Shown: one piece after another, positions 12,076 through 60,504 of the stretch
Numbering within the stretch: position 1 is the first letter of the stretch
How the letters are laid out: the number at the start of each line of letters is the position of its first letter
Source: Zasmidium citrigriseum
Lineage: Eukaryota > Ascomycota > Dothideomycetes > Mycosphaerellales > Mycosphaerellaceae
Reading direction: 5' to 3'
DNA length: 64,000 nucleotides
NCBI GenBank assembly: GCA_002786025.1
Contig: NHNW01000027.1
Span: 124,001-188,000 of the forward strand
Position numbers and translations under genes: made by a program
The notes under the pieces: model-generated
The model's input: only the letters and a program-made list of their open reading frames with translations
Told to the model about the DNA's origin: nothing
The model's database searches: none

Positions 12076-12230
12076 CGTTGGGGCCAAAGTTTGTTGAATC
12101 ACTGGGATGCCTGATCAGTGTGTTGGACTCGAAGGAGTGCAATTGACTTTGTATCCTCAGGGAAGGAGATAGATGCGGCTGTGTGCATGCAGCATCGCCC
12201 GTCAATCCTCGGCGGCGATTGGCGTGCGCC

Positions 12231-20001: not shown

Positions 20002-20628
20002 CTATGTCATGCCGGCTTCTCGCTCAATTTCCTCGGCGGTCTCCGCAGCGTCCTGTTGAATGGACTGCGGAATGCTCCACCAGCCCTGGTCCTTCGCCTC
20101 CTCGACTTTCAAGATGAGGTCGTTGACTCGTCGTCGAATCTGCAGCGGGATGTTCTGCCATGCCAGACCGGGCATCTTCTTTCCGTGTTTCATCCCCTCC
20201 AGCCTCCGCAGATAGGCATTCATCAGGCACACCACCGCTGATGCGCACTCGAACGGGTTGTTGACTCCGGCCAGCATATCGTCCGACGAGCGCATGAACT
20301 CGGCGGATGGCTCCTCTGACAGCCATTCCAGGAATTGGGCGTTGTGTGGTTTGATGGAGAGCGCCACGGTCTGTGCGTGCATTGCGCAGAGGTGCTCGAG
20401 ACCTTCTTCACACAAGTCGCAGATTTGGGCGAGGCCCCACTTGTTGGTCTTACGCGAGGCCAACTTGCGCTTGACCCAGTCGCGCAACTTCCGAGACCAC
20501 TTGGCTTTGAACATGTCTGGGGTTTCGATCTGCGTACACGAATCAGCGACCTTCGATCGATTGAAAGCCATATCAACACTCACAGGGCCATACACTGGCT
20601 TGTTCTCGCTTCTCTCGGTCGGGGCCAT
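20002..20628 (-). CDS. Array family member A
   Basis: Exons 20628-20584 (MAPTERSENKPVYGP) and 20529-20002; 190 aa. The 54-nt intron GTGAGT...CAG (branch GCTGAT) is stop-free and a multiple of three, so retained-intron mRNA would stay in frame. Exon 2 opens IETPDMFKAKWSRKL, then ICDLCEEGLEHLC with a CxxC pair, MHAQTVALSI, NPFECASAV, LRRLEGMKHGKK, WQNIPLQIRRRVND and KVEEAKDQGWW. The expected DFP is absent from the middle. This is the leftmost, 3'-most copy, next to the mitochondrial gene. Function unknown. Confidence 0.85.
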   Translation of the reverse strand: MAPTERSENKPVYGPVSVDMAFNRSKVADSCTQIETPDMFKAKWSRKLRDWVKRKLASRKTNKWGLAQICDLCEEGLEHLCAMHAQTVALSIKPHNAQFLEWLSEEPSAEFMRSSDDMLAGVNNPFECASAVVCLMNAYLRRLEGMKHGKKMPGLAWQNIPLQIRRRVNDLILKVEEAKDQGWWSIPQSIQQDAAETAEEIEREAGMT

Positions 20629-20966
20629 GGTGCTGAGCGATGTTGTGGTGTGCTCGAGGAGAAGTGGTTCGGAAGAGAAGAGGATCGAAAGTTCACATGC
20701 GAATTCAAGGGTCCAGCGCTGCAAGCGCCGTCTCATCGGAACATTCACTCGGGTCATTCACTCGTCCTGACAGCTACTGACCGCAATGCTCGCAGGATTT
20801 CGAGACGCTATCCTCTCACGACCACGAAGCAAGCTCAGCACATCGGTGCCGTGACAAGTGAAGACAGTGCACACTGCTCACTTTGGAACAAGCAGTACCC
20901 AATAGTTCCCTCCCATCGCCCTCCACAACATCCATCGCCGCATCGGTATCCAAGACCGCCTCACCC

Positions 20967-21528
20967 TCAAACCCCCAAATCCTCCGGCGGCGGATCCCAC
21001 CACCCCTCCTCCCTCGCCTCCTCAACCCTCAAAAGAACCTCATTAACCCCCATCCGCATCTCCAGCGGCAACTGCTGCCACCTAAGCCCATACCCCTCCA
21101 ACAATCCGCCCAACTTCACCTTCTCCAACTTCCTCAAATAATCATCCACCAGCGCCATCACGCCCGTCGCGCTGACCATCGGATTGATCATCACACTCTC
21201 GACATCCTCTTTCGAGTACAGTCCTCCTGAAGGGGGCCGCTGCGGCGGTGCATCGGGGAAGTCGCTGCGGGAGACGCCGAGTTCGAGCATTTGGATGCGG
21301 AAGTTTTCGAGGAGGGCGAAGCCAGTGGTGATGAGGTGGTAGATCCAGAGGGGGTGCGTTTTGTTGGCGTTGAGGTAGGTTTCCCAGGTGAAGGTTGTGG
21401 TTTTGGAGAGCCATTTTGTGGCGAAGATTTGGGGGGTCATTAGCTGAGTGCGAGGGTTAGTGAAAGAGTCATGAGGAGAGGTGCATACGTACTGGGCCGT
21501 ATACTGGCTTCGTTGAGTTCAAAGCCAT
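20967..21528 (-). CDS. Array family member B
   Basis: Exons 21528-21493 (MALNSTKPVYGP) and 21443-20967; 170 aa. The intron 21444-21492 is GTACGT...CAG with branch CTAAC. Exon 2 opens LMTPQIFATKWLSK, continues WIYHLITTGFALLENFRIQMLELGV and SDFPDAP, then INPMVSATG in place of NPF, LRKLEKVKLGG, WQQLPLEMRMGVNEVLL and RVEEAREEGWW, and stops shortly after. The CxxC pair seen in some relatives is missing. Gap to A is 338 bp and contains a duplicated intergenic block. Confidence 0.85.
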
Positions 21529-21839
21529 GATGGTTGTATTGTGGTGATGGTGTTGGTGGGGAGAAGAGTAGGAATGGAGATCGAGGCGGCCAAGATGTGA
21601 CTTGTCAATTTCGCGGCGAGCGCGCCAACTACTGCTGCAGACGCCCGTCTCCAAGGTGATTTTGGTACCTAATCAGAGCCACCCGTCCCCTCTTTTGTGC
21701 GCTGACAGCGATGCTTGCAGGCACTCTACAATGAACCCACTCGTGTCCAACGAGACGGATGTTGACAGCAATCCCGACGCCCGCAGCCTCGCACAAGTAT
21801 TAAAACAACTATCCCGAGACTTCGGCTCCAGACACCGCC

Positions 21840-22434
21840 TCACGAATACATCCACCTATCTCTCGCCCTCGCCTTTCTCAACGCCCCCCGTCGATGATCC
21901 TCCGGCACACTCCACCACCCCTCCCTCTTCGCCCTCTCAGTCTTCTCAAACACCTCCTCAACCTCCCTTCGACTCCCCACAGGCAAGTCCTCCCAAACCA
22001 TCCCACCCACAAGCTCGCCCATCTTCATCGCCTCCAGCCGACACAGAAATGGATCCACCACAAACAACAGCGTCATGGCCGAATGGAAGGGGTTCACCTC
22101 CGCAACCGGAAGTACTCCTGGGCGGACGTGCTGCGGACACGTTGTCTCGGGCGGGAAGGAGAGAAGGTCGAGGGAGAGTTGGCAGGCTTGGGTGTGGAAG
22201 TTTGAGAGGTACTCGTAGGCAGCGATGCTGATGATGGTCATTTGGAGGGGTGTGGTGGACTTGTTCTGGACGTAGTAGTTGAGGAAGTGTTTGAATTTGG
22301 CGCACCATGTCCGACCGAAGATGGGTTTGGACATGAGCTGCTTTCAGGTTAGCGATGGCTTGTTGGATGGGAGTGGATGTCGTTTCGAGCGGGCCGTGGG
22401 CTGGCTTGATCTGGTTTCCTTGAACTGAAGCCAT
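21840..22434 (-). pseudogene. Array family member C, splice donor lost
   Basis: The exon-1 coding sequence is present (22434-22390, MASVQGNQIKPAHGP) and the exon-2 frame is intact from LMSKPIFGRTWCAKFKHF to the stop at 21840, with NPFHSAMTL, LCRLEAMKMGE, WEDLPVGSRREVEEVF and KREGWW. However, after GGCCCG, where every other copy has a GT donor, this copy reads CTCGAAACG, and there is no GT at all before the acceptor CTAACCTGAAAGCAG. Reading through shifts the frame. It may be dead, or translated from the internal ATG at 22334 (164 aa, lacking the N-terminal module). Confidence 0.7.
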
Positions 22435-22668
22435 GGCAATTTCCTATACTGTTCGCTGGTGTTGTTGGACAAGAAGCTTGTTTGGAACGGAAGTGAGCCC
22501 AGAGCCGGATGTGATTGCGGTGTCTGTCCTTCAAACACTGTTGCAAACGAGCCTTGGATGGAAGCACCTCCCCGATGCACTCATCTGTGTCCTTGGCCGC
22601 TGACAGCGATTCTCGCAGGCACTCGGCACGCTATTCTCCCACAACCATGAAGCGAAGCTCACTCCTTG

Positions 22669-23297
22669 CTACTGAAATTCCAACCACGGTCCGAGCGCCT
22701 CTCTCCTCTGCATCAACTCCCTCATCGCCTCGCGATCGTCCTCCTGGATGAACCACCAACCATCTTCCTTCGCCTCCTGGACCTTCAAAAGCAGCTCGTT
22801 AAGTCTTTGACGAGTGTCGAGGGGCATCTTCGACCAAGGCATTCCGTCCATCGTCTGACCTAGCTTCATTGCTTGGAAGCGCTGAAGGAACCCATCTACT
22901 AGCCGGAGCAAAGACTTTCCATGGACGAAAGGGTTGACCCTCGCAATGAGGGTTTCCACCCTCTCGCTTGGATCTTTGGGGACGGGTTTGTCGCTGAAGG
23001 CGTCGGGAAAGTCGGAGGGTATGATCCGCAGCTCTACGGCTTGTGCGTAGAAGTGGAAGAGGTGTTCATATGCCTGCTCGCACATGTCGCACAGCCAGGT
23101 CGCGGTCTTTGGTTGTGGCTCGAGCTCGTGTGTTGCGTAGAAGTCGCGGAGGTGGCGGCGGAACTTGACGAGCCATTTGTCTTTGAAGATGGTGGGTGAC
23201 TGCGCCTGCAAGGAGTCAGCGGGTGTGATGAAGGCGAGAGGTGCGCAAAACATACTGGGCCATAGGTTCTCTTGCCAATTTCTGAATCTTTGGTCAT
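22669..23297 (-). CDS. Array family member D
   Basis: Exons 23297-23256 (MTKDSEIGKRTYGP) and 23205-22669; 192 aa. The 50-nt intron is GTATGT...CAG. Exon 2 opens AQSPTIFKDKWLVKFRRHL, then WLCDMCEQAYEHLFHFYAQA with a CxxC pair, SDFPDAF, VNPFVHGKSL, LQRFQAMKLGQTM, WSKMPLDTRQRLNELLL and VQEAKEDGWW. It is close to the apparent family consensus and a useful reference copy. Confidence 0.88.
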
Positions 23298-23519
23298 GAT
23301 GGTAGCAGGCGATGGTGTTGGTGGGTGGATGTGTGCCGTCAGAAGACGGATGAAGTGAGGGACACGAGCTCAAAGCAGCGGCGAGATTTGCCACGGCAAG
23401 CGCGATTGTAAGTGAAACTGCAAACAACCAGCCGGAGCTAGTGACGCCCTCTTCTATGCACTGACGCAAACGTTCTTAGGCCTCTTACACGCAGTATCCT
23501 GCCATCGTGGGATCTTTCC

Positions 23520-24087
23520 TCAGAACAGCTTGTCAAGCGCCCCAAACCCTGGAACCTGGACCTTTCCCACCGAATCTCGCAACTCATCAGTAAGAACGAC
23601 CCACCAGCCATCCTCTTTCGCCTCCTCAATCCTCACAAGCAACTCGTTGACCCTCTTGCGCACCTCCAGAGGGAAAGCTTGCCACTGCGCGACAGGGTCC
23701 TTGCCATGCTTGATCTTCTTAAACATGTCCAGAAACATGACCACCAGGTTCTGGGTCAAGGTCGTGGGCTCGAAAGGGTTTTGCGCGTCTCCAGGGGGAA
23801 AGTCGGAGGCTGTAAGTTGGAGCTCGGCAGCTTGCTCGTAGAAGTTCAGAACGAGCGAAAAGCCCAGCTCACAGACGTGGACGAGCTTTGAGGGAGTTTC
23901 GGCGGGACTCATGGCTGGATCAGCGGCGTTGTCGCGGAGGAAGTCTTCGTACTTTTGTAGCCATTTCGCTGCGAAGATGGAGGGTGACTCGGCCTGGGTG
24001 GGATGTCAGCGTCTGCTATCAAACCAAGTGGGAAGTAGCACTTACAGGACCGTAGTGCTTGCGGTCTCGGTCTTTCCTCTTCGTCAT
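23520..24087 (-). CDS. Array family member E
   Basis: Exons 24087-24046 (MTKRKDRDRKHYGP, strongly basic) and 23993-23520; 171 aa. The 52-nt intron is GTAAGT...CAG. Exon 2 opens AESPSIFAAKWLQKYEDFL, then VCELGFSLVLNFYEQAAELQL, SDFPPGDAQNPF, WQAFPLEVRKRVNELLV and IEEAKEDGWW. The segment between NPF and the Trp motif is short (MFLDMFKKIKHGKD). Confidence 0.87.
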
Positions 24088-24342
24088 GATGGAGGTTGTG
24101 TTGGCGGGCGGGTAGATGGTTGTGTGTTGTCAGGAGAGGATGAAGTGAGGAAGATAAAGCTCAAAGCAGCGACGACATTTCCAAGTTGCCACGGCAGGCG
24201 CGACCGTAAGTTCGATTTCAAACTACAATCATCTATGGAACTGGCCAAGACCAATCACTTCCTGTCTCACTGATGACAACACTTTAGGTTTCCCATCCAA
24301 CGAGCATTTCATCAACCTCGTGCTTGCGATTGTTTTATCTCG

Positions 24343-24907
24343 TCACCCGCTCCGCGCCTTCTCCTGACGAAGCCTCTCCTCCTCTACCGCCAGCATCGCA
24401 GCGTCCGCCACAACCCACCAGCCTGCCTCCTTGGCCCCCTCGATACGCTCCAGTAGGTCATTCACTCTCTTCCTGTCCTTCAAGGGAATCGATTGCCACG
24501 GCCTCCCCGAGTTTCGCTGTCCATACTTGATCGCCTTGAGGCGCCCCAAAAGATCATCCACCATGCACAGCGCGGACTCGGCTTGGGTGAAGGGATTGAA
24601 TCGTGCGTCGAAGGGGAAGTTGTCGTTGGTGAGATGAAGTTCAGCAGCCTGGGCATAGAAATGAAAGAGGAACTCGAAGTCTTGCTCGCAGATGTCGCAT
24701 ATGTGGTTGACAACTACCTCGCTTGACATGGAGTTCAGGCGTTTCTGGATCTCGTCAGTGTTCGCTGAGAATTTGAAGATCCATTTCACGGCGAAGACGA
24801 TGGGCGTTTGAACCTGTTCAAGGCATCAGCATCTGGTGTGACGATCAGGCATGGGAAGCACCTACCGGACCAAAGGCCTTTGGTGACTGCTCCTGGTCTG
24901 CTGCCAT
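24343..24907 (-). CDS. Array family member F
   Basis: Exons 24907-24866 (MAADQEQSPKAFGP) and 24813-24343; 170 aa. The 52-nt intron is GTAGGT...CAG. Exon 2 opens VQTPIVFAVKWIFKF, then ICDICEQDFEFLFHFYAQA with CxxC, DNFPFDARFNPF, LGRLKAIKYGQ, WQSIPLKDRKRVNDLLE and GAKEAGWW. Exon 1 is acidic/polar rather than Lys-rich. A TATA box is visible upstream. Confidence 0.87.
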
Positions 24908-24997
24908 GGTGCCTCGGAACGAAATGGACTGCACGCTGTGATGTGTGATTTGAAAAGAACAATGAAGCTAGAGAATCAAGCTTGGAGGTCGGGAGTC

Positions 24998-25005
24998 TTT
25001 TTATA
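24998..25005 (-). promoter_or_regulatory. TATA box of array member F
   Basis: TATAAAAA on the minus strand, about 90 nt upstream of the ATG at 24907, the same spacing as in the GH39-like gene and member P. Confidence 0.45.
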
Positions 25006-25206
25006 AGCCAGACTCGAGTGAATGTTCGCTGTTCAGCAGCTGATCAATTTCATTCACTCGCCTCCTGGAGCCGTGGCCGTCAGTCTAGACAATTCACGAC
25101 CCTTCGGAGGTTCCAACCACCTACTGCTGGCTCAACCTGCTGGCAGCGACTTTTCTAGGCCTTTCCCGCGCAGTAAAGTCAATGATCTGCCATCCAGCCT
25201 TATGCA

Positions 25207-25791
25207 TCAACTGCGGTCCTTTGGCCAAATGCCACGCTCATCCAAGTGCCGAATCTGCTTTCTCACATCCTGGCGCCCCTTTTCAGTGACCACCCACCAG
25301 CCGGCCTCAACTGCCTCCTCCACATGCACGAGTAGATTGTTGATCTTCTTTCGGACCTCCAGAGGAAAGCGATTCCAAGACGTCCGTCGGCCGGATTCAT
25401 TCTCCACTCCATACTTGATACCCTTGAACCACTCCAGGAACATGTCCACCATCACTTGAGCGTCGCTAGCCTTTGCAAATGGATTCTCCTCCTCGTCGTC
25501 TGCGAAATCTGAGGCGCTGACTTTGATCTCAGTGGCTTGCAGGTGGAAGTGGAAGGCGTGCGCAAAAAGGTTCTCGTATTTCTGTGCATACCAGAAGGGC
25601 GTCAGAGCGAATGTTGGAGAAGGCTCGTCGATCTCTAGCTTGCGGAATTTCGACAACCACTTGGCTGCGAATATTGGTGGCGATTGAATCTAGGCAATGA
25701 AGGTGAGCGTCGAGTGTCAGGGGCACTGATGATGAGTACATGTACTCACTGGACCATAGGGCTTGCTTTTTCTGGTTTTTTTCTTCGCCAT
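25207..25791 (-). CDS. Array family member G
   Basis: Exons 25791-25750 (MAKKKTRKSKPYGP, Lys/Arg-rich) and 25689-25207; 174 aa. The 60-nt intron is GTGAGT...TAG, the longest in the array. Exon 2 opens IQSPPIFAAKWLSKFRKLE, then AHAFHFHLQATEIKV, SDFADDEEENPFAKAS, WFKGIKYGVEN, WNRFPLEVRKKINNLLV and VEEAVEAGWW. With I and J it forms a related trio with basic exon 1 and VEEAV/VEKAT-type ends. Confidence 0.87.
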
Positions 25792-26029
25792 GAAGATAAC
25801 GCCGAAAGCTTTGGCTCTGTGGACTATTCGGACAGGTGTGAAAGTGAGAAGTTGAAAAGACCAGAGGGAGAAACAAGAGTTGAAGTATCGAGGAAGATCA
25901 CAAACATCTGCCCAAGCCCAAGCCTTCTGGTGGATTCCGAGACATTCACTTGATCTCTCATCACTGGCAGCAACAATCGCAGGTCTCTAGAAAGCGCCTG
26001 TCTAACAAGCATCTCGGCGACCGGCATCA

Positions 26030-26085
26030 CTTGTCTGTCTTCTTCTCTTCGGCACAAATCCTCGCCTCCTCGATCGCATTCCTCG
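26030..26085 (-). pseudogene. Short relic of an array-family 3' end
   Basis: Between members G and H the minus strand reads NAIEEARICAEEKKTDK then a stop. This resembles the VN-x-L-x-x-VEEA segment near the end of intact copies. It has no upstream exon. It is short, so homology is a judgement from pattern and local context. Confidence 0.35.
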
Positions 26086-26144
26086 GACACTGACGGCGAC
26101 AATCGCGGTCTTCTGAAGCCCGGCGACCTAACGAGCGACCTGCT

Positions 26145-26716
26145 TCACTTGCCACGGTAGCCATACTTCTTCTTGTCGCGGACCCGCCTCTTCTCCATCT
26201 CCTGGTCCATATACTCCGTCACAACCCACAAGCCCTTCTCCTTCGCCTCCTCCACCTTCACCAAGAGGTCGTTGACCCTGCCTCTTAATCCGAGTTGAAG
26301 GGACTGCCACCTGACTAAGGGATTTCCCACATACTTGCTTTCCTTGAAACACCGCAAGATATTTTCTGCCATAGCCACCACCTCGACTTCTCTAAAGAAT
26401 GGGTTGGCGTATTCACTGGGAGGGAAATCGGAAGTAGTGAGACCGAGCTCGACGGCTTGCGCGTGGAAATGCTTGACGTCCTCGAAAACTCGCTCGGCTA
26501 CGCGGCATAGACCATCGAGCTGCTCGGCGAATGTTGGGAAATGTAGCTTGAGATTGTTGTTGGCGTCGATTTGTGCATCGAATTTGGAAATCCATTTGTG
26601 GGCGAAGATGTATGGCGTTTCAGCCTGTCGAAGATTAGCATGTGACGTTGCGATGAAAGATGATCAACACTTACTGGACCAAAGGTTTTGAGCGATCCCT
26701 CCCTATCTTGCGCCAT
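26145..26716 (-). CDS. Array family member H
   Basis: Exons 26716-26675 (MAQDREGSLKTFGP) and 26624-26145; 173 aa. The 50-nt intron is GTAAGT...CAG with branch GCTAAT. Exon 2 opens AETPYIFAHKWISKFDAQ, then FEDVKHFHAQAVELGL, SDFPPSEYANPF, CFKESKYVGN, WQSLQLGLRGRVNDLL and VEEAKEKGLW, so GWW is changed to GLW. The tail is very basic (EKRRVRDKKKYGYRGK). Confidence 0.85.
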
Positions 26717-27410
26717 GGCGACGGTGGCGATGAATGTGTATGAGGCTTTTGGTTGAGTTTGTTGGTTAGGTGCGCGGTGATCGAAGTTGAAAGTTTGAAG
26801 AGCGTAGAAGCAGAAAGAATGGTCGGCAAAGGGGCTGACTGTAAGTGCCGCCACCACATACACTGATTCACTTGAGGGTAGCCACGGGGACTCACTTGAT
26901 CTCTGCTCAGCTCCAGAATTCGCAATGTTTCTCGCTGCACAATTTCCTTCAAAATCATAAAGAACGGCTGACTCTTTCTCTCCAAATATCCCGCTCGTAC
27001 TCCCTGGCAATCGATCTTTCACTCAACATGCTGCACCTTTACGCCCATCTAATATAGTCTGAGGCACAGATTCTGGACGCACTTGACCAAACGACCCCTA
27101 CAAGCGGTCCCGCACAGTGCTTCATCTGTCTTCTTCACGAGGCCATCAAATAGGGGGTTGCGATGTGGCATCAAGTAATGGCAACACAGTGAAGCCAAAA
27201 AGGTGAAGCTTGAAACTTGAAACAGCACTTTGTATGACCACTTCGTATGAACTAGCCAGGACTATTCACTTGCTTCTGAGAGATCGACCGTCCGTCACAG
27301 TGGTCAAGACACGGAGGTCCCAGAAGCTTCCAGGCAAACGACCGTGTCAAACGCCCCTGCCGCATGCCTCTTTCCGTCCGCTGCACAATACCGCGAGTCT
27401 TCGTCTCTGA
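26717..27410. other. Longest gap inside the array
   Basis: 694 bp between members H and I. It contains two ATTCACTTG elements (26866-26874 and 27264-27272) and, at about 27331-27398, a block that is repeated at about 28221-28287 downstream of member J. No coding frame is supported; the extra length could hold a fully decayed copy. Confidence 0.4.
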
Positions 27411-27971
27411 TTACTTGTCTTCCTCGTCTTGCTGAACTTGTTTCAAGAAGTCCTGGCGTGACTCTTCCGTAACCTCCCACCAGCCGTCTTTCGTAGCCTT
27501 CTCGACTCGCTCAACCAGATTGTTGACCCGATTCCGCACCACCAGCGGGAAGACACTCCACGAACCCTTCTCGACCTTTCCATCATGCGTACCGCCGTGC
27601 TTGACATCCTTCATCCACTGCAGCAACATATCCACCAGTAGCTGCCACTCGCTTGCGTGGGCGAATGGATTTGCCTCATTGTCTGGGAAGTCCGAGGCCG
27701 TAAGTTGGAGCTCAGTTGCTTGTATTTGGAAGTGGAAGAGGTGTGTGAATAAGTGCTCGCATCGCTGAATGTACCACGAGGGAGTGTTTGCGAATATTGG
27801 CGAATGACTTCCAAGGCCTTCCAGTGTGCGGAACTTCTCTAGCCACTTTGCCGCGAAGATCGATGGCGACTCTGTCTGATCGGGGGAGTCAGAGCCTGGT
27901 GTTAGATAGCACAGGGCGTGGGCACTTACTGGGCCGGACGTCTTGCCCTTCTTCCCTTTCTTCTTCGCCAT
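27411..27971 (-). CDS. Array family member I
   Basis: Exons 27971-27930 (MAKKKGKKGKTSGP) and 27875-27411; 168 aa. The 54-nt intron GTAAGT...CAG is stop-free and a multiple of three, like that of A. Exon 2 opens TESPSIFAAKWLEKFRTLE, then FTHLFHFQIQATELQL, SDFPDNEANPF, WMKDVKHGG, WSVFPLVVRNRVNNLVE and VEKATKDGWW. Exon 1 differs from J mainly in lacking the extended basic stretch. Confidence 0.88.
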   Translation of the reverse strand: MAKKKGKKGKTSGPVSAHALCYLTPGSDSPDQTESPSIFAAKWLEKFRTLEGLGSHSPIFANTPSWYIQRCEHLFTHLFHFQIQATELQLTASDFPDNEANPFAHASEWQLLVDMLLQWMKDVKHGGTHDGKVEKGSWSVFPLVVRNRVNNLVERVEKATKDGWWEVTEESRQDFLKQVQQDEEDK

Positions 27972-28388
27972 GGTGACGGCGGCTGCAGATCTGTGTGAGG
28001 GTGCGTGGCTGCTTGCGTTGTTGTTCAGAGCGGATTCGAGCCGTGTGCTGTTTTGCAAAAGGCGACGCGGCTTCCAACATGCAGCTAGGGTGGCCAAAGA
28101 GTGAGGTGGAAACGTGAAGCTTTCAGAAATTGACATATGACAGTGTCACTTTACAGCAGCTGATCGGCTAGACCCATTTGTACCATAATCTCTGCTCTGT
28201 CCTGCATACACTCTCAACGTCTGCGAGCAAACGAGTCTTGCAAACGCCCCCGCAACATGTCCCTTTCCGTCTGCTGCAAGAATCCGTTCACTGGGAGCTA
28301 GCCACGCCCTCTACTTCATGTTCTACCCACTGATAATAGCTGCTCGAGGCATCTCTCGCACACTCATCCAAGGACTCGTAGCCTGTCG

Positions 28389-28960
28389 TCACTCTCCCTG
28401 CTCGTCGTCCTCGTAAACCTTCTTCAAGAACCCCTGGCGCGCCTCATCTGTGACAACCCACCAGCCTGCCTTAACTGCCTCCTCCACATGCATAAGCAAG
28501 TCATTGATCCTCCTTCGGACCGCCAGCGGAATTGCACTCCATGGCAGTCCCCCAAAAGGCTTCTTTCCATGCTTGACGTCCCTAAACAACTGCATACACA
28601 TGTCCACCAGTAGCTGTTCCTGGCTAGCAAGAACAAAAGGATTCGTGCCGTTGAAGTCTGAGGCTATGAGTCGGAGCTCAGTGGCTTGTACGTGAAAGTA
28701 GTAGAGGTGTGCGAACTTTCGCTCCTGTATTTCAGTGTAGTAGGAGGGTGTGCGATCGACTTCGGCGGGAAGATGTACGCGGGCCAGATCGCGAAACTTG
28801 TTCAGCCACTTGGCTGCAAAGATCGACGGTGATTGTGCCTGCGAAGGAGAATCAACGTCTGATATCACGTCTACGGGAAGGTGCTTACCGGGCCATAAGG
28901 CTTCCCCTTACTGCTCTCCCTCTTGCTTCTCTTGCCTTTTTTACCTTTCTTCATCGCCAT
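28389..28960 (-). CDS. Array family member J
   Basis: Exons 28960-28889 and 28838-28389; 173 aa. Exon 1 is the longest of the array, 24 codons, with MAMKKGKKGKRSKRESS followed by GKPYGP. The 50-nt intron is GTAAGC...CAG. Exon 2 opens AQSPSIFAAKWLNKFRDLA, then FAHLYYFHVQATELRL, SDFNGTNPF, LFRDVKHGKK, WSAIPLAVRRRINDLLM and VEEAVKAGWW. The DFP motif is reduced to DF. The basic N-terminus could be a nuclear or nucleolar signal; this is inference. Confidence 0.88.
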
Positions 28961-29145
28961 GATGATCGCACCAAGTTGCTGCGAAAGGTGTGAGATTAGA
29001 AGTATGAAGGGCCCGGAAGCAGATATGAAAGTCCAAATGATAAAGGGCATGAGGACAAACATCCACCGTGTGCCGCATTCTTCTGGTCTGTTCTAAATCA
29101 TTCACATGTCCCACCTCCGCTGAGTGACACTGTCGCAGCGCCCCC

Positions 29146-29824
29146 TTACACACTGTTCTTCAATGTCAGGAAGAACGGAGGACACTTGCCCTCCACGATA
29201 TTCCGCTCAATATTGCCTTCCCTTCTGTCAAACAACGCAGTCGCCTTCTTCCTCGACTCATCCAGCACGTCCCAAGCCGCCATCTTCCTCGCCTCATCCA
29301 GTCCCGCAAGGAGCTCATTCATAGCCCTCCGATCCGCCAGAGGAAGTTGCTGCCACTTCAGCCCCAACATCGGCTTGCCCTGCTTCATCCTCACAAGCCT
29401 CTCTAGCACGACTTCCACGTACAGTGCCATGATTGCCGCGCACGCAAATGGATTCGTGCTCAAGCTCACGATGTCATCTGGAGCTTGCGGCTTGCCTAGA
29501 TCTTTACCTTTGTCGGCGTGTGCGGTGGTGTATTCGGGGTAGTCGGTCGGGGAAAGGGAGAGCTCGCTGCTCTGCTGTTCGAAGTGGAGGATGTGCTCGT
29601 AGCCGCGTGAGGCGAGCTTGCAGTACCAGACCGGGTTTGTTCTATCCGGCGGACTGATGTAGTTGTGGAAGAGCACGTTGCGGAACTTGGTGATCCATTT
29701 CGAGGCGAGGATTTCTGGAGTCATGGGCTAGGGCGGATGAATTAGCGATGATACAACTCTTCGGCATGGAAAGACTTACTGGGCCGTAGGTGCGCAAGAC
29801 ATTCTGGGCCTTGTTTCTTGCCAT
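29146..29824 (-). CDS. Array family member K
   Basis: Exons 29824-29780 (MARNKAQNVLRTYGP) and 29727-29146; 208 aa. The 52-nt intron is GTAAGT...TAG with branch GCTAAT. Exon 2 opens PMTPEILASKWITKFRNVL, then VWYCKLASRGYEHILHFEQQSS, DYPEYTT, TNPFACAAIM, LERLVRMKQGKPM, WQQLPLADRRAMNELL and DEARKMAAW, so GWW is lost. A longer C-terminal tail (ERNIVEGKCPPFFLTLKNSV) distinguishes K and L from the rest. Confidence 0.85.
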
Positions 29825-29959
29825 TGTATCTGTCATTTGGGAGTTCAAGTGAGAGAGTCGAGGTGATGACTTGTTTGGTTGCGGACTGCAGGAGTGCAAA
29901 CGGAATCCATGCAGGGCGCCGAAATGACTTCACGCTAGTGAAAAGCCAAACCACCCGGT

Positions 29960-30068
29960 GTTTGCATGTGAAATCGAGTTTGATATGCGCAATGCTGAAC
30001 TCTCTCGTTTCAAGAAGGATGCATAGTTTTCGGTACCACTTCTTGGCCCAGTCAAACGGGCTCTCGAG
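29960..30068 (-). pseudogene. Truncated relic of an exon 2
   Basis: On the minus strand, after an acceptor-like ATGCAG, the frame reads LESPFDWAKKWYRKLCILL, closely matching the start of exon 2 in member L (PETPSHWAEKWYSKTRNLFF). Homology fades within about 35 codons and none of the NPF, RLE or GWW motifs follow. No exon 1 is present. It is a partial duplicate or the remains of a deleted copy between K and L. Confidence 0.65.
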
Positions 30069-30136
30069 CTGCATTCTTCCGTAGCTAATCACAGCCATTC
30101 ACTCGCCTCCTCAGCTCCCTCGTCCGTCTTACACGG

Positions 30137-30824
30137 CTAAACGCACTCGAAGCCCGGGGGAAATTCACCGCATGAGAACGACCTCCGCAAGTCCAGAAGC
30201 TGGTTCTCAATCTGCACCACGATGCCTTCGAAGACATCCCGCGCCCTTGCACGAGACGCATCCGAAATGTCGGATCGGTTGCGCTCGTTGCTTCTCTCGA
30301 TCTCTTCAAGGACATAGCCAATGTGCTGCCGATGTCGTAGAGGTACACTCTGCCAGGCCACACCAAACAGAACCTTGCCATGCTTCATTTCCTCGAGTCT
30401 CTGTATAGCGCCGTCGACGTGGGAGATGACCAAATTCATGCATGCGAATGGATTGGTGCAGAAGTAGGTAAGCTCCTCGGGCGACTGGACTCGGGGGTCT
30501 ATCATGGTGATCTTGTGCGTATATTCGGGGAAGTCGGTGCTCTTGAGGGCGAGCTGCATGCTCTGGAGATTGAAGTTGACGATGTGGTCGAAGCCGTCTT
30601 CGGCGAAGTGGAAGACCCAGATGGGACTCCACATTGAGTCTGTCTCTCCACGCTTTCGCATGAGGTGGTGGAAAAACAGGTTGCGCGTTTTGGAGTACCA
30701 CTTCTCAGCCCAGTGGGATGGCGTCTCGGGCTGGGAGGTCGAGTCAGCGTGTATTGTCATATGCAGCTTGAATGATACTAACTGGGCCATATTTTGGCGG
30801 CCCGAGGTCTGCTTCAGTCGCCAT
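30137..30824 (-). CDS. Array family member L
   Basis: Exons 30824-30783 (MATEADLGPPKYGP) and 30730-30137; 211 aa, the longest copy. The 52-nt intron is GTTAGT...CAG. Exon 2 opens PETPSHWAEKWYSKTRNLFF, then WVFHFAEDGFDHIVNFNLQ, DFPEYTHK, TNPFACMNLV, IQRLEEMKHGKVL, WQSVPLRHRQHIGYVLE and EIERSNERNRSD, so the GWW motif is missing. The extended tail ends SFSCGEFPPGFECV, similar in layout to K. Confidence 0.85.
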
Positions 30825-31232
30825 GTTGGGTGGGATGCTCGAGGCGAAGAGGAAGGGAAGTTGGGAAAGCGCAGGTTGATGGCAGCTTGCACGCTCTTCC
30901 CGTGGCAGGCACGGCGGCGCACTTACCTCAAGGTTGTTGGAAAGGACATTTTACTTCACTCCTTTGAACATACATCAACAGCAAAGTGGTACTTCATCTG
31001 AGGAAAGCTTACGGCGGAGCGCTCGCTGTTGTTCAGTTACTTTCCGGTTTCCAGGCTCTTCCATTTCCGCCCCGGCGTCATCGTCAAGGAGTATCCCGTC
31101 GCCTCGATATGAGTCTGGACCTCACCAAAGATGTCCTTCCTGGTGTATATCCAAGCTCTTGCGCTTCTCGAGACCCTTGAAGATCATCATGCTCACCACC
31201 GCCTCGCTTCTACCCTGTCCTCTGTTCCTCCC

Positions 31233-31787
31233 TCAGACAGCCCACCAGCCCATTTCTCGTGCTGCCTCAACAGCCTCCAACATGTCGTTGATTTTCTGTC
31301 GGATGCGATACGGAAATTCTTGCCACAGGTTACCGTGCATCTTGACGCCCTTCTCCTTCACCTGCTGGAAGTGACGAAGCTTGGTGTCTATGACCTGCAG
31401 TAGCGCCGCGGCTCCGGAAAAGGGGTTGCAGTCGTGCGATCCTGCTAGAAATGCCATGGTCGTCTCCTGGAAGGATTCGTCCGGCGCAACAGACTTTGGT
31501 CGGGGAAAATCGCCATAGCCCAAACCGAGCTCGGTCGCTTGCGAATAGAAGTGAGAGAGATGGGTGATGCCGGACTGGTAGAAGTCGAAGATCAAGAACG
31601 GATCGCTTCCGGCGGCATTTTGAAGCAGCTGATATGTGAACAGGTCCTGTATCTTCGTGGCCCACTTGTTCCTGAAGATTTCCGGCGACATTACCTATTA
31701 AACGTCAACATTAGCGTCAAGCCGACACGATGTCCAGGAGGAACATACTGGTCCGAAGGCTGGCCGCGAGTCGGTGGTCTCTGACAT
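31233..31787 (-). CDS. Array family member M
   Basis: Exons 31787-31749 (MSETTDSRPAFGP) and 31694-31233; 166 aa, the shortest copy. The 54-nt intron is GTATGT...TAG. Exon 2 opens VMSPEIFRNKWATKIQDLF, then FYQSGITHLSHFYSQATELGL, GDFPRPKS, CNPFSGAAAL, LRHFQQVKEKGVKM, WQEFPYRIRQKINDML and AAREMGWWAV, then stops at once. The +1 frame beyond the stop stays open (SEGGTEDRVEARRW), suggesting the tail seen in N and O was lost by a small indel. Confidence 0.85.
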
Positions 31788-31870
31788 TTTGATAGTGACT
31801 GTGTCGAGAGTGGTACGTGCGGAGGAAAAAGAGAAAGTGCGAGACGTGCGACAAAGGGTCCGCTTGTTGG

Positions 31871-31920
31871 CGTTCACATGCAAACGCTGCTTGCGAAGTT
31901 TACCCGAACTGCCCGGAAAT
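31871..31920 (-). promoter_or_regulatory. Promoter block shared by members M, N and O
   Basis: A block of about 50 bp rich in CACATGC-AACGC-GCTAG and TTTACCCGA-type words lies 84-134 nt upstream of the ATG of M. Related blocks occur at 32807-32860 (upstream of N) and 33661-33710 (upstream of O) with nearly the same spacing. It is either a conserved promoter or duplicated flank. Confidence 0.5.
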
Positions 31921-32088
31921 TGAGGAACGCGAGAAGTATGAACGACTTTCTTACGCCTGTTGTCGCTAATCTTTGTCATCTCACGTAGCTGTCGAATTCT
32001 AGACTATTGCGACTGACATCGACCTCATGTGAGAGGCCACCTTGTCCGAGTTACGCAGCTTCTTGTCCTCTTCAAGGCTCAGGCGAAA

Positions 32089-32716
32089 TCACATCCAGAC
32101 GCCCATTGCCTCCATCTTTCGATACATCTTCGTGAGGAAGTCCTGCTGCTCCTTCGGCACATTCCACCATCCGAGCCGGCGCGCCTCCTCGACAGCTACA
32201 AGAAGATCATTGACCTTCTGCCGATTACGAAGCGGCAGCTGAGACCACGAAACTCCACGCATCTTGTCACCCTTTGTCTTCATAGCCTCGAGTCTGCGAA
32301 GCTTTGTGTCCACCATGCCCATCAAGCAGCCAGCGCTACCGAACGGATTCGTGTCGTCCATATTCTCCAGAGGATCTGCTGGGCAGTTCTCGAGAGTAAG
32401 ATTCTCGAGGTCGATGTCTGGACGCTTTGGCCGGGGAAAGTCGTAGGGAGTCAGACCGTGCTCGGCGGCTTGCATGAAGAAGTGGAAGAGGTGGACGAAG
32501 CCCGTGTCGCAGAAGTTGCAGAGCCAGATCGGGCTGCTCTTTTCCTGGCCGAAGTAGTCCTTGGAGAGGACACTCTGAATCTTGGTGTACCATTTGATTT
32601 TGAACATCTCTGGCGACATGAGCTGTCAAGAGTCAGCTTCGAGTGTCGAGTTGACATGGAGCATACGAGGGACATACTGGGCCGAAAACTGGTTTGGGAT
32701 CGTCTGTATCCGCCAT
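32089..32716 (-). CDS. Array family member N
   Basis: Exons 32716-32678 (MADTDDPKPVFGP) and 32622-32089; 190 aa. The 55-nt intron is GTATGT...CAG. Exon 2 opens LMSPEMFKIKWYTKIQSVL, then WLCNFCDTGFVHLFHFFMQAA with CxxC, YDFPRPKRPD, DTNPFGSAGCL, LRRLEAMKTKGDKM, WSQLPLRNRQKVNDLL and VEEARRLGWW. The tail ends MYRKMEAMGVWM. M, N and O share DFP(R/P)P, a longer acidic insert before NPF, and a promoter block. Confidence 0.88.
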
Positions 32717-32940
32717 GTTGGTGGTGATTGTGGCGGATGTTGTGTTGCGAGGAATCAAGAGCAAGAGAAAGAGAAGTGCGATCAAGGGTCTATTTGAAGC
32801 CTTCTCATTCACTTTCCAGCGGCGCTAGCGAGATTTACCCGAGAAGTGCTGGAAAGTACACTCTGCTTTCACCAGGCTTTCCGAGCACATGTCCTGTCTA
32901 TCGCAAGACGCAGCCTCCGTCCATACTTGCGCCGATAGAA

Positions 32941-33578
32941 TCATCGATACTGGGCCTCACTCTGTCGATACGACGCCAAGTACTCCTCCTCCTGCTCCTT
33001 CGAAATGCTCCACCAACCAGCCTCCCGTGCCTTCTCAGCAGCCTCAAAGACGTCGTTAAGTCTCTGGCGCGTGCGATATGGGATGCCCTGCCACGTCGCC
33101 TTGCCCGCGATCTTATCCCCCTTTTGCTTTAGAGCCTCGAGTCTCCGGAGGTTCGTGTTCAGGACGAGCAGCACATGATGTGCGCTCTGGAAGGGGTTGA
33201 CATCGTCGAGGACTGCTAGCAGCTCCTCGTCGCTGCCTGAAAAAGTAGCACCCTCGCGGAGTTGGTCGAATTGGGATTGTGGGGGTGGGAAGTCGAGGTG
33301 GGTCAATTGTAGTTCTACGGCCTGAGCGTGGAAGTGGGAGAGGTGTTCGATGCCGTCGTGGTAGAAGAAGGCCCTGTACGGGTCGCGGTCGCTTTCTTCT
33401 TTGTCGAAAAGCTTGCTTTTGAAGAGCTTCTGGAGTTTGGCGACCCATTTGTTCCTGAAGATTTGCGGCGACATGGCCTACAGATCATTGGTTAGCATAC
33501 AGCATCAGAAAATGCAGTAGTGTAACGCACCGGCCCAAAGGAAGGCTTGCTAACGGTATCGGTCGCCATGCTCATCAT
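32941..33578 (-). CDS. Array family member O
   Basis: Exons 33578-33531 (MMSMATDTVSKPSFGP) and 33477-32941; 194 aa. Three in-frame ATGs (33578, 33575, 33569) are available; the third gives an exon 1 like its sisters. The 53-nt intron is GTGCGT...TAG with branch GCTAAC. Exon 2 opens AMSPQIFRNKWVAKLQKLF, then FFYHDGIEHLSHFHAQAVELQL, LDFPPPQS, DVNPFQSAHHV, LRRLEALKQKGDKI, WQGIPYRTRQRLNDVF and KAREAGWW. Confidence 0.88.
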
Positions 33579-33760
33579 GGTAGATAATCGGATGGCCTTT
33601 GAAGGAGATAGCCTGTGCAGGCGGGAAGTGCGACGAAGTGTCTATTTGTAAGTTTGGCAATCACATGCCAACGCCGCTAGTGAAGCTTAGCCGAAGCGGC
33701 TCATCCCGCTCATTCACTCGAATCAACGGGACGCTAGTAACTAAAACCCCGCCATCACAA

Positions 33761-34401
33761 CTACATGAAGTTCCGCGCATTAGGCCCCACGAATCGAAAA
33801 ATGCCAAACCCCCTCTCCTCATCCGACTTCAGCGCCTGTGCCATCACCTGCCGATCCTGATTCGTCACAATCCACCAGCCCTGCGCCCTCCCAGCCTCCG
33901 TGCTTGCCAAAAGCCTATCAACACACATCCGGGCACCAACCGAAAACTGATGCCAAGAAAATCCATAAATCCTCTCATCCCTCTCTCGGAGCAGCGCAAG
34001 TCTCCTGAGCAACGTATCGACTGCAAGCCGCGTCTTGCACATCATAGCGAAAGGATTGACAATGTGAGGATCAACGCTCTCGGGGCATGTAATTCAAAAA
34101 GAAGGGTCTCTTGGAGGTGTTGGCGGGAGCGGCCAGCCGAAGTGTTGGGGTTGGAGGTGGAGTTCGTAGGCTTCGATTTGGAAGGCGATGATGTGTCTGT
34201 AGCCGTGGAGACAGAAGAGGATCCACCAGATTGGGGACTGGGGGTCATTTGGGAAGTAGTATCTTTCGAAGAAGAGGGCGCGGAATTTGCGGAGCCATTT
34301 GTTTGAGAACATGGCTGGGGTCATTGGCTGTTGGGTGTGGTCAGGATCTCGGTCGAGACTTGGGGGGAAGAAAGGATACTTACGGGGCCGAATCGTGGCA
34401 T
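33761..34401 (-). pseudogene. Array family member P, in-frame TGA
   Basis: Exons 34401-34384 (MPRFGP, only six codons) and 34327-33761. The 56-nt intron is GTAAGT...CAG. Exon 2 opens PMTPAMFSNKWLRKFRALFF and has YRHIIAFQIEAYELHL. A single TGA at 34094-34096 interrupts an otherwise continuous frame, which resumes ITCPESVDPHIVNPFAMM, then LRRLALLRERDERI, WHQFSVGARMCVDRLL and GRAQGWW to the TAG at 33761. A CGA-to-TGA transition would explain it. The intact 3' half suggests the mutation is recent, or that the stop is read through. Confidence 0.8.
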
Positions 34402-34490
34402 GGTTTGTTCTTGTGGTCGGGAATGAAATAATCTTCTTCGTTCCAAGATGTCAAAGAGGAGAAAATGGAAAGTATGGAAAGACGGCAGCC

Positions 34491-34496
34491 TTTATA
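34491..34496 (-). promoter_or_regulatory. TATA box of array member P
   Basis: TATAAA on the minus strand, about 90 nt upstream of the ATG at 34401. It remains although the coding sequence is interrupted. Confidence 0.4.
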
Positions 34497-34654
34497 TCTA
34501 TCGTCCAGGCTCCAGTCGGGCGAGACACTTTCACGGAGCTTCTCGAAGACAGCACCGTGCCTTACACAAAGGGCACATGAGTCCCGCACCACTGACAGCA
34601 CACAATCACCACGGACCCAAGCCAATACTCAAAAGCCCATCCGAACCCCAAAGT

Positions 34655-35288
34655 CTACCTCACAAAAGCACCCATCGCCTCGGCCTCCCGGAAAGAATCC
34701 AAGATATACTTCTCCTTCCCGTCGGTCTTAGGAAAAAGCCACCATCCCTCCTCTCTCGCCTCCTCAACCTTCCAAAACAACTCATTCATCTGTCGTCTCG
34801 AAACAAGAGGAAGATCCTGCCATCGCATCCCATACATCGCGTTCCCTTTCGTTTTCATCTCCTCCAGCCTCTGCAAGAGTTGATCCACCAACACCAACAC
34901 TTGCTTCGCGCCCGCGAATGGGTTCACCCTGGCGGCGGGTACATTTTCGGCGCAGTGTACATCAGGTTGATTGTCGAGCCCCGAAGGCTGCGGCTCCTCG
35001 GGGTAGCTGTTCGGCGTGAGGGAGTGCGCGGCGGCTTGGGTCTTAAATTGCAGGATGTGGTCATAGCCTTCGGAGCAGAGGGTACAGATCCAGGAGGTGT
35101 TGTTTTGGGTGAATTGGGGGGCGCCACGGCGCCAGAGTAGGCTGCGGAAGCGGGCGAGCCACTTGTCGGCGAAGAGAGAGGGGGTCATGAGCTGGTAGAG
35201 CGAGAAGAGTTAGCCAATTCAATGAGACATGGGGTTCAGGAGTACTTACCGGTCCGTAAAAGACCTCCTTCTGCTTGTTTTGCGTCAT
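34655..35288 (-). CDS. Array family member Q
   Basis: Exons 35288-35250 (MTQNKQKEVFYGP) and 35191-34655; 191 aa. The 58-nt intron is GTAAGT...CAG with branch GCTAAC. Exon 2 opens LMTPSLFADKWLARFRSLL, then WICTLCSEGYDHILQFKTQAA with CxxC, NSYPEEPQ, RVNPFAGAKQV, LQRLEEMKTKGNAM, WQDLPLVSRRQMNELF and VEEAREEGWW. This is the rightmost, 5'-most copy, 288 bp from the SDR gene. Confidence 0.88.
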
Positions 35289-35576
35289 GGTGATGGGTCG
35301 TCAGGTGGATGTGGTCTGTCGAAAGGTGAAAAGGCGGGTAGAAGAGCGAGGCTTGAAATATCTGACACGCTGCATTGCGGACGACGCTTCCAGTGACTTT
35401 TCCTGCCATTCACTTGTGTTCTCGCTCACTGGCCTAGTTGCATCAGTGCTCGAAATCTCTGCCAACACCTTGTTCAGGGAAGACATTCACTCGCCTAGCC
35501 CCTTTCCCCTGCCACACACATCGTCCAACATCCATCCACCACCCATCCCTCACTCCTCAACCACCTCCCCTCTCCC

Positions 35577-36987: not shown

Positions 36988-38160
36988 TCATACACTAGAG
37001 CTCTCGCCCAAGCTCCACAGTACACCCTCGTACACGCCAAACATGATTGCCGCGCTAGGCACCACTCGCAGCATGTGAGGGACCAAACCGCCGTAGAGTG
37101 CAGGCATGCCCTCTTCCCGGAAAACGGTTGTGAAGCAGCTCCAGAGGCCAGTATACTTCACCCGTCCAGTGGCATCCACCGGCGCTTGTCGTAATCTCGT
37201 TCGCACGACTTCGTGAGGATATGTGATCAACGCCGCGACGAATTTGGCCCCTCCAGCTGCAGTGAGCTTGCCCGTCCATTCGACCGTCTTGTCCCACGCG
37301 GTTGGTTGTCGATGCGATGCTTCGAGAAGAGCTTGTCGTCGTGACAATGAGCTCTTTGCCTGCTCGTACAGCACCCATTGAAGAGTGCTCTCGCTCACGC
37401 CGAGGTATGATGCTGAAAGACCCCTGTACAGGCCTCTGGTACCCTCATGTCTGACAGTCTTGACAACACAATCCCACGCATTACGGTATTGTCGTCCTTG
37501 GCCACCCGGTCCAGCGTTCTGCTTGTCCAGTTGTAATCTCGTCTTGACCAGCCAGATCGGATTCGTCGCCGTGCCCGTGATTATACCCGCCGTCGCCGCC
37601 GCCAACAAATGCACACCTGCCACTTCCTGTCCGTTGAAGAACAGATTACTGTACACTCTCTTTCCATTGCCATACGCCCAAAAGTTAATTGCCCTCGCTG
37701 GCACCACACCGATTAGATTCGGACCCAATCCCTTGAACAACGCCCTCCAGCCCTCTACCTTCGGTATTTGAGCCAGGATTTGCCCCGTTTCACTGATGTG
37801 CAGCCAGCTCGCCCTCAGGAAGCTCATCTGATGCGGTGGTGGGATCCCTTTCGCTGCCCTGCTGGCCGCGAGTTGGCCTTGGTAGAATGTGCTCTGTAAC
37901 CTCGTCTTGAGCACATCCAGCGGCGATGTGAGGGTCGCGGCGGTCATTCCTCCTGCGCCGCCTGCGACCAGATGCGCCCATGGCTTTCGCTCTTTGATGC
38001 TGCCCGCCGTGCTGGCAGGCGTGTTTGCTACCGAGGCTCCATCTTGCTGTGTTGGTTTGGGATCGACCTGGCCGAGCTCACGGCTCTGGTCGAAAGGGAC
38101 GGACTGGATGGAGCTGTGCGGGTGCGAGGACGTCGCAGGCAGAGACGGTTGTGCCACCAT
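36988..38160 (-). CDS. rim2: Mitochondrial pyrimidine-nucleotide carrier
   Basis: Mitochondrial carrier (SLC25) family, closest in features to yeast Rim2 and human SLC25A33/36, which exchange pyrimidine nucleotides across the inner membrane. 390 aa, single exon, ATG at 38160. Three repeats each carry a Px(D/E)xx(K/R) signature: SPLDVLKTRLQ, NPIWLVKTRLQ and YPHEVVRTRLRQ. The IWLVKTR tryptophan of repeat 2 is typical of the nucleotide and NAD carrier branch. The N-terminal 60 residues are low-complexity. It is divergent from CIA30 across about 340 bp, so the two mitochondrial genes may share a promoter. Confidence 0.88.
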   Translation of the reverse strand: MVAQPSLPATSSHPHSSIQSVPFDQSRELGQVDPKPTQQDGASVANTPASTAGSIKERKPWAHLVAGGAGGMTAATLTSPLDVLKTRLQSTFYQGQLAASRAAKGIPPPHQMSFLRASWLHISETGQILAQIPKVEGWRALFKGLGPNLIGVVPARAINFWAYGNGKRVYSNLFFNGQEVAGVHLLAAATAGIITGTATNPIWLVKTRLQLDKQNAGPGGQGRQYRNAWDCVVKTVRHEGTRGLYRGLSASYLGVSESTLQWVLYEQAKSSLSRRQALLEASHRQPTAWDKTVEWTGKLTAAGGAKFVAALITYPHEVVRTRLRQAPVDATGRVKYTGLWSCFTTVFREEGMPALYGGLVPHMLRVVPSAAIMFGVYEGVLWSLGESSSV

Positions 38161-60019: not shown

Positions 60020-60504
60020 GGCCATCGAAGGAAGACTGGAGGATTGGTCACTTGCCTGATGGGCGGGGCTCGCGTCTCTGCTGGGGTGGAGCGTTGTTTT
60101 GGGGTCGGCACTGGCCCGTTCATTTGCTCTGTGGTTATTGCTTTGGCTTCTTGGCTTGTGCTTTTGGCAATTCCTGTATTGGCATGTGCGTTCTTTCATC
60201 CACTTCCGTTTCTTCTCCCATAAGCTGCACCTGTGCTTACCTGTCGCAGTGAGTGTCTATTATAGATGCTCGTCACTAACCTCTCTCAACTTTCACAACT
60301 TTCACATGCTGGCGCCTGGTCCGTGCGCCTGCAACGCTATGAGTAATGCTCTCGCGACTTCCTTTTTTCGACACCGCCGCATCACCACAACCGACACCGA
60401 CATCGCGATCAACTACATCCAAGACATATTCCACTGCCCGAAACAACTGCGACCCGATCACATTATACTCAAACCCGCTGCATACACACACCACGTAGAG
60501 CAAC
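60020..60504. other. Intergenic region
   Basis: About 485 bp before the first F-box-like gene, including a CACAACTTTCACA duplication near 60291-60305. No gene supported. Confidence 0.35.

What the first reader, a model, noticed from the sequence alone, without database searches (positions are those of the whole stretch)
20002..35288. Tandem array of 17 paralogs of an unrecognised two-exon gene family
Seen directly: seventeen consecutive minus-strand genes share exon layout, splice position and a set of short motifs (KW near the start, HF-x-x-QA, DFP, NPF, RLEAMK-x-GK, EEA-x-x-x-GWW). Sequence between motifs is strongly diverged. I know of no named fungal family with this combination. Such large single-strand arrays in fungi usually reflect selection for copy number or diversity, as in recognition, defence or adaptation; that part is inference.
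Basis: partly seen in the sequence, partly recalled or inferred. Interest (0 to 1): 0.88.

Follow-up and report, generated by a model that had tools for sequence, protein, structure and literature searches.

The report
Seventeen-copy fungal orphan gene array
A mould related to Zasmidium carries, in one place in its genome, a row of seventeen related genes for small helical proteins that none of our searches could match to a known protein; most copies look intact and old, but what they do is not known.

Summary
Window 20002-35288 contains 17 minus-strand, head-to-tail copies of one two-exon gene. In the 15 clean models a 12-24 residue first exon ends in (Y/F/S)GP, followed by a phase-0 intron of 49-60 nt and a 149-197 residue second exon. 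C lacks a GT donor; P has an in-frame TGA.

Seven own-genome searches found no intact copy elsewhere, only one decayed piece on contig C101. Pfam, NCBIfam, PADLOC, PDB sequences, Foldseek and a 5.8-billion-protein database gave no convincing relative. A control with a neighbouring gene reached 93% identity in Zasmidium cellare, so that database does hold this fungal family.

AlphaFold gives a confident all-helical domain (copy N: pLDDT 88.6, pTM 0.85) with no convincing fold match. The copies are old (22-54% identity), were duplicated in place, and are on average under purifying selection (dN/dS 0.18-0.65 in 13 pairs). No sign of a secretion signal or of RIP damage in the array; positive selection at single sites was not tested.

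Best reading: an old, lineage-restricted family of intracellular helical binding proteins, kept by birth and death. A recognition or defence role is possible but unproven. The kind (ancient tandem orphan paralogs) is known from Neurospora; the family itself appears unnamed.

The parts
20002..20628 (-). copy A, two exons (20628-20584; 20529-20002), 190 aa
   Evidence: second exon was the query
20967..21528 (-). copy B (21528-21493; 21443-20967), 170 aa
21840..22434 (-). copy C, probably damaged: second exon open (22337-21840), but no GT donor after exon 1 and KW reads TW
   Evidence: hmm E 4.4e-53, C being in the profile
22669..23297 (-). copy D (23297-23256; 23205-22669), 192 aa
23520..24087 (-). 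copy E (24087-24046; 23993-23520), 171 aa, basic exon 1 (net charge +4)
24343..24907 (-). copy F (24907-24866; 24813-24343), 170 aa
25207..25791 (-). copy G (25791-25750; 25689-25207), 174 aa, basic exon 1 (+6)
26145..26716 (-). copy H (26716-26675; 26624-26145), 173 aa
27411..27971 (-). copy I (27971-27930; 27875-27411), 168 aa, basic exon 1 (+6)
28389..28960 (-). copy J (28960-28889; 28838-28389), 173 aa, long basic exon 1 (+9)
29146..29836 (-). copy K (29836-29780; 29727-29146), 212 aa, lacks GWW
29745..30098 (-). possible relic of a second-exon start in the K-L spacer (weak)
   Evidence: hmmsearch E 0.57, residues 12-42 of the open frame match positions 2-32 of the profile
30137..30824 (-). 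copy L (30824-30783; 30730-30137), 211 aa, lacks GWW
31233..31787 (-). copy M (31787-31749; 31694-31233), 166 aa, ends just after GWW
32089..32716 (-). copy N (32716-32678; 32622-32089), 190 aa, best match to the family profile; modelled by AlphaFold
32941..33578 (-). copy O (33578-33531; 33477-32941), 194 aa
33761..34401 (-). copy P, in-frame TGA in second exon; two halves match the profile separately
   Evidence: (E 3.7e-18 and 1.8e-16)
34655..35288 (-). copy Q (35288-35250; 35191-34655), 191 aa
20742..20764 (-). two CGAGTGAATG elements upstream of A
25015..25060 (.). inverted pair of CGAGTGAATG elements upstream of F
30096..30105 (-). CGAGTGAATG upstream of K
33711..33720 (-). CGAGTGAATG upstream of O
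35484..35493 (-). CGAGTGAATG upstream of Q

Best explanation
The array is an old, lineage-restricted family of small intracellular proteins built from one all-helical domain, expanded in place by tandem duplication and kept by birth and death.

Shown by computation: 17 copies, shared two-exon design, one locus, age, purifying selection on average in the pairs tested, no N-terminal hydrophobic signal, a confident helical model.

Inferred: each copy is transcribed from its own promoter, and the copies with CGAGTGAATG are partly co-regulated by one factor. The domain works as a non-enzymatic binding module for protein partners. Its short first exon, basic in E, G, I and J and neutral or acidic in several others, sets location or partner choice. 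Different copies have come to bind different partners or act at different times.
For: Gene models: (15 clean models). One locus: in 7 own-genome searches every listed match lay in the array except one decayed piece on C101; the tool scores only its best candidates. In-place duplication: neighbours are more alike than in shuffled order, 21 of 10,000 shuffles reached the observed mean (16 copies, P left out). Constraint: dN/dS 0.18-0.65 (NG86) in 13 chosen pairs of 120; a neutral frame with one substitution per site stayed open in 1 of 2000 trials for each of 3 copies, and with 0.3 in 22-26 of 2000. All-helical, pLDDT 84.6 (A) and 88.6 (N). Intracellular: no hydrophobic N-terminus in 15 models (hydropathy only). 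Element: 7 exact CGAGTGAATG in 5.4 kb of spacers against 0 in 47.5 kb of the rest of the window; 259 in the genome against 52 for the reversed pattern.
Against: Nothing here shows transcription, localisation or a binding partner. Copy K has one 19-residue stretch of mean hydropathy 1.81 (residues 113-131), over the usual 1.6 for a membrane segment (cut-off recalled); it lies in the conserved helix after NPF, and the other 14 models stay at or below 1.44, so I read it as a core helix. The element was chosen after a k-mer search on the same spacers; only 5 of 17 copies carry it exactly, 6 of 17 with one mismatch. The polar invariant residues (Q, N, K, R) could also form an active or ligand site. 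The dS values are near saturation; YN00 failed or gave no value in 12 of 13 pairs.
Confidence: 0.5

Rival explanations
1. A variable intracellular repertoire for self/non-self recognition or defence against viruses, mobile elements or competitors; copy number and divergence are the point of the array.
For: Large one-strand array, old and diverged copies, damaged copies C and P, no orthologs found among relatives' proteins. A NACHT-type gene lies about 8 kb to the left (9656-12114). One of 16 members matches the PADLOC defence model PtuA (AAA ATPase) at E 0.0042, which I take as chance because no other member does.
Against: No NACHT, HET or other recognition domain in the Pfam scan of 16 second exons. 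dN/dS below 1 in the pairs tested. The NACHT neighbour may be coincidence. No population data.
Confidence: 0.17
2. Secreted or delivered proteins acting on a host plant or on microbes (effector family).
For: Lineage-restricted, tandem and diverging, as many effector families are (recalled); one relative, Zasmidium syzygii, was isolated from banana leaves (PMC10917495, abstract read).
Against: No hydrophobic N-terminus, 0-5 cysteines per protein. GC as in the flanks, no RIP signature, conserved neighbours.
Confidence: 0.08
3. A decaying array with little present function: copies persist because they are harmless, and divergence is only age.
For: C and P damaged, one relic on C101 and a weak one between K and L; no relatives, no known domain.
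Against: 15 of 17 models are intact although dS is about 1 or more in the 13 pairs tested; under neutrality an open frame would nearly always be lost. Splice sites and exon-1 tail are kept.
Confidence: 0.1
4. An enzyme or small-ligand binding family of a known fold that our searches could not recognise, expanded for substrate range or dose.
For: Invariant polar residues Q, N, K and R besides W and P; weak fold-search rows include heme-, iron- and RNA-binding helical proteins; one member (A) matches NCBIfam DPS models at E 0.028 and 0.055.
Confidence: 0.15

Closest known systems
Tandemly duplicated orphan genes of Neurospora crassa (PMC2684829, passages read)
   Same: Lineage-restricted genes, head-to-tail paralogs, judged ancient, in a fungus where RIP limits new duplicates; clusters of five or more paralogs are marked in a figure legend.
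   Different: Here 17 copies stand in one run with a fixed two-exon design and a confident helical model. N. crassa orphans are enriched near chromosome ends; whether this array lies near one was not tested. No sequence relation was tested.
Fungal NLR/HET allorecognition genes (recalled, apart from the NACHT hit)
   Same: Multi-copy, fast-evolving, intracellular.
   Different: No NACHT, HET, WD40 or ankyrin domain in the Pfam scan of the copies.
Tandem effector clusters of plant-associated fungi (recalled)
   Same: Tandem, lineage-restricted.
   Different: No hydrophobic N-terminus, few cysteines.

Membership tests
Ancient tandem orphan paralogs of RIP-active ascomycetes | Head-to-tail paralogs at one locus | tested here: met
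   17 copies, one strand, 15.3 kb
Ancient tandem orphan paralogs of RIP-active ascomycetes | No homolog outside the lineage | tested here: met
   No homolog in the 5.8-billion-protein database though relatives' proteins are there; a word-based search of predicted proteins can miss very diverged or unannotated orthologs
Ancient tandem orphan paralogs of RIP-active ascomycetes | Old divergence between copies | tested here: met
   22-54% aa identity over 120 pairs of second exons, at most 65% nt identity
Ancient tandem orphan paralogs of RIP-active ascomycetes | RIP active in the genome | tested here: inconclusive
   A broken DUF3435 region on C70 has 17 TAG and 7 TAA and no TGA, as RIP would give; the window itself shows no RIP signature; not tested genome-wide
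Secreted effector family | N-terminal secretion signal | tested here: not met
   Charged first exons and no hydrophobic N-terminal stretch in 15 models; hydropathy only, no signal-peptide predictor at hand
Fungal NLR/HET allorecognition | NACHT, NB-ARC or HET domain | tested here: not met
   None among the Pfam matches at E <= 0.1 of 16 of 16 second exons
Fungal NLR/HET allorecognition | HeLo-type helical cell-death domain | tested here: inconclusive
   Searches list the 50 best entries only; they exclude nothing
Starship or other mobile-element cargo | DUF3435 captain at the element's edge | tested here: not met
   4 DUF3435 matches in the genome, 3 on C70 and 1 below cut-off on C116, none on C69
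Starship or other mobile-element cargo | Empty site in related strains | not testable with these tools
   No related fungal genomes at hand

The most novel reading that the evidence does not exclude
A previously undescribed intracellular protein family with a fold not yet in the PDB, maintained as a diversified one-locus repertoire of recognition modules. A short, separately encoded (Y/F)GP tail would serve as the constant handle and the helical domain as the variable part, in a fungal lineage that otherwise cannot keep recent duplicates.
Probability: 0.15. Interest if true: 0.8.

Novelty: new variant of a known kind. Interest (0 to 1): 0.5.

Why it matters
If the family is real and expressed, it is a large unnamed set of intracellular proteins in a fungal family with many plant-associated members, and an unusually old tandem array in fungi thought to suppress duplication. 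It makes two questions testable: how a fungus with signs of RIP keeps 17 paralogs (here, no pair of second exons above 65% nucleotide identity), and what a lineage-specific helical family does that is worth keeping in so many forms. The genome-wide enriched element CGAGTGAATG gives a handle on regulation.

Tried and rejected
Known-family searches gave only single-member matches: Pfam best 0.0044 to OSTMP1 (16.8 bits, cut-off 25.8), PADLOC 0.0042 to PtuA, NCBIfam best 0.028. I treat these as chance. PDB sequence search: one match at E 0.23 over 30 positions, chance.

Viral or prokaryotic origin: one scan of viral contigs (1 stretch matched a pattern, none a relative) and one of bacterial and archaeal contigs (61 stretches, none a relative), both with six peptide patterns of copy N only, so they would miss distant relatives. 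GC equals that of the flanks (0.538 against 0.534 and 0.540).

RIP as direct cause of divergence inside the array: composite index -0.81 against -0.77 outside, so no RIP damage. Starship cargo: no captain on C69. Literature: 6 searches listed no paper that I recognised as describing this family; they cannot search by sequence, and I opened only three papers (abstract of PMC10917495; passages of PMC3510045 and PMC2684829).

Not possible: counting copies in related fungi, HHpred, RNA data, a signal-peptide predictor, mapping the invariant residues on the model.
Full report
WHAT IS THERE. The region 20002-35288 holds seventeen consecutive genes on the minus strand. In the 15 clean models each has a short first exon of 36-72 nt, a phase-0 intron of 49-60 nt and a second exon of 149-197 codons. 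The first exon ends in GP in all 15: YGP in nine, FGP in five, SGP in I. Fifteen copies give complete models with GT-AG introns and one stop. Copy C has an open second exon but no GT after its GGCCC, and reads TW for KW. Copy P begins MPRFGP before GTAA (read directly) and has an in-frame TGA; its two halves match the family profile separately at E 1.8e-16 and 3.7e-18 although P was not in the profile. The stated coordinates are right.

MOTIFS. Over the 16 second exons of alignment A1 the invariant residues are W11, Q53, N91, P92, K114, W124 and R132.

ONE LOCUS. The window is part of contig C69 of an unnamed 44.4-Mb, 148-contig genome. Seven copies were used as queries against it (A, N, G, K, Q, D, O). 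Every listed match lay in the array, except a short piece on C101, found with N, Q and D (best E 1.1e-9). That piece seems to keep part of exon 1 and one stretch of exon 2 and is otherwise decayed. The tool scores only its best candidates, so very distant copies could be missed. A further possible relic lies between K and L (29745-30098, E 0.57), too weak to count on.

WHOSE GENOME. The neighbouring mitochondrial carrier (36988-38160) is 93% identical to a Zasmidium cellare protein, then 78-85% to proteins of Lecanosticta, Fulvia, Dothistroma, Cercospora and Pseudocercospora. So the source is a Mycosphaerellaceae fungus near Zasmidium.

NO RELATIVES FOUND. The alignment of 16 copies had 5008 candidates in the 5.8-billion-protein database and none at E <= 0.001. 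Copy N alone had 28 candidates and none at E <= 10. One search is the control: the same database holds this fungal family in depth. It is a well-conserved gene, so it shows that the fungi are there, not that a fast-evolving family would be found. The search needs shared five-residue words and predicted proteins. Pfam, NCBIfam and PADLOC gave single-member matches no better than E 0.0042, the PDB sequences one at E 0.23, viral contigs and bacterial and archaeal contigs no relative.

AGE AND SELECTION. Pairwise identity is 22-54%, mean 32%, over 120 pairs; nucleotide identity of second exons is at most 65%. Neighbours resemble each other more than in shuffled order (21 of 10,000 shuffles, P left out), and the tree groups G/I/J with E, M/O with N, and K with L: duplication in place. 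In 13 chosen pairs dS is 0.97-2.9 and dN 0.34-0.69 (NG86; ratio 0.18-0.65); YN00 gave a value for one pair only. A neutral simulation kept the frame open in 1 of 2000 trials at one substitution per site, and in 22-26 of 2000 at 0.3, for three copies. So most copies have probably been under constraint for most of their history. This does not exclude positive selection at single sites. A puzzle remains: an array this old should be shared with Z. cellare, yet no protein of it was found there. Loss, missing gene calls, fast divergence or limits of the search are open.

RIP. The array shows no RIP signature (composite index -0.81 against -0.77 in the rest of the window). A broken DUF3435 region on C70 carries 24 stops, all TAG or TAA, the mark RIP would leave. 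RIP is documented in the related C. fulvum and D. septosporum (PMC3510045, passages read). My inference: young duplicates above the RIP threshold are destroyed, so only old, diverged copies remain. This alone could explain why the sequence between motifs is strongly diverged, without selection for diversity.

PROMOTERS. CGAGTGAATG occurs exactly 7 times in the 5.4 kb upstream of the 17 genes (for Q, 450 bases were taken) and not at all in 47.5 kb of the rest of the window. The motif was picked from the same spacers, so this contrast is partly circular. Independently, it occurs 259 times in the genome, these 7 included, against 52 for the reversed pattern. It lies upstream of A (two), F (an inverted pair), K, O and Q; with one mismatch also of G; eleven copies lack it at that level. 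Around 24 sites in 20 stretches from elsewhere in the genome no wider sequence is shared, which fits a binding site rather than a repeat. TCACATG lies near 7 of these 24 sites where 0.6 were expected, and TCGCAAA near 8 where 1.1 were expected; these are the top two of many words, so they are leads only. The stretches upstream of D and E are 76% identical over 102 bases, their second exons 53%.

LIKELY WORKING. No copy of the 15 has a hydrophobic N-terminus, so I take the proteins as intracellular. One 19-residue stretch in K reaches a mean hydropathy of 1.81; it falls in the helix after NPF that all copies share, and the other 14 models stay at or below 1.44. First exons of E, G, I and J carry net charge +4 to +9; the other eleven lie between -2 and +2. 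I infer that the tail sets place or partner. The domain is all-helical and has no invariant histidine, cysteine or acidic residue, so a binding role is the best guess (0.5); recognition or defence is a rival at 0.17.

AGAINST KNOWN KINDS. The nearest described situation is the set of tandem orphan paralogs in Neurospora crassa: 82 tandem pairs, judged ancient, 73 of them head to tail (PMC2684829, passages read). The present array is a large variant of that kind with a fixed gene design. It fails the tests made for secreted effectors (signal), NLR/HET genes (domains) and Starship cargo (captain).

VERDICT. Interest 0.5.

Noticed in passing
genome of the window (G000), e.g. window 20742, 25015, 35484: The 10-mer CGAGTGAATG is five times commoner in the genome than its reversed pattern (259 against 52); it looks like a general regulatory element. 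An inverted pair 36 bases apart occurs both upstream of F and on C61 at 984420.
   Followed up: partly
L013:2902-4096 (contig C101): Several degenerate repeats of a line like PAELRIRIYEYALDPL stand close to the decayed family copy; one of the open frames, 3374-4096, has no Pfam match. From memory the line resembles fungal F-box-like or 2EXR proteins.
   Followed up: partly
9656-12114, minus strand: A NACHT-type gene (NPHP3_N, NACHT, DUF7791) with an unassigned upstream part (11257-12114, no Pfam family), about 8 kb left of the array.
   Followed up: partly
G000:C70:484061-485419: A DUF3435 (Starship captain type) region with 17 TAG and 7 TAA stops and no TGA, as repeat-induced point mutation would leave.
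   Followed up: no
23320-23413 and 24111-24211: The stretches upstream of D and E are 76% identical over 102 bases while their second exons are 53% identical: recent conversion or promoter constraint.
   Followed up: partly
60499-62193, plus strand: A 565-aa open frame with lysine-rich tandem repeats at its start (18-base unit) and no Pfam family.
   Followed up: no
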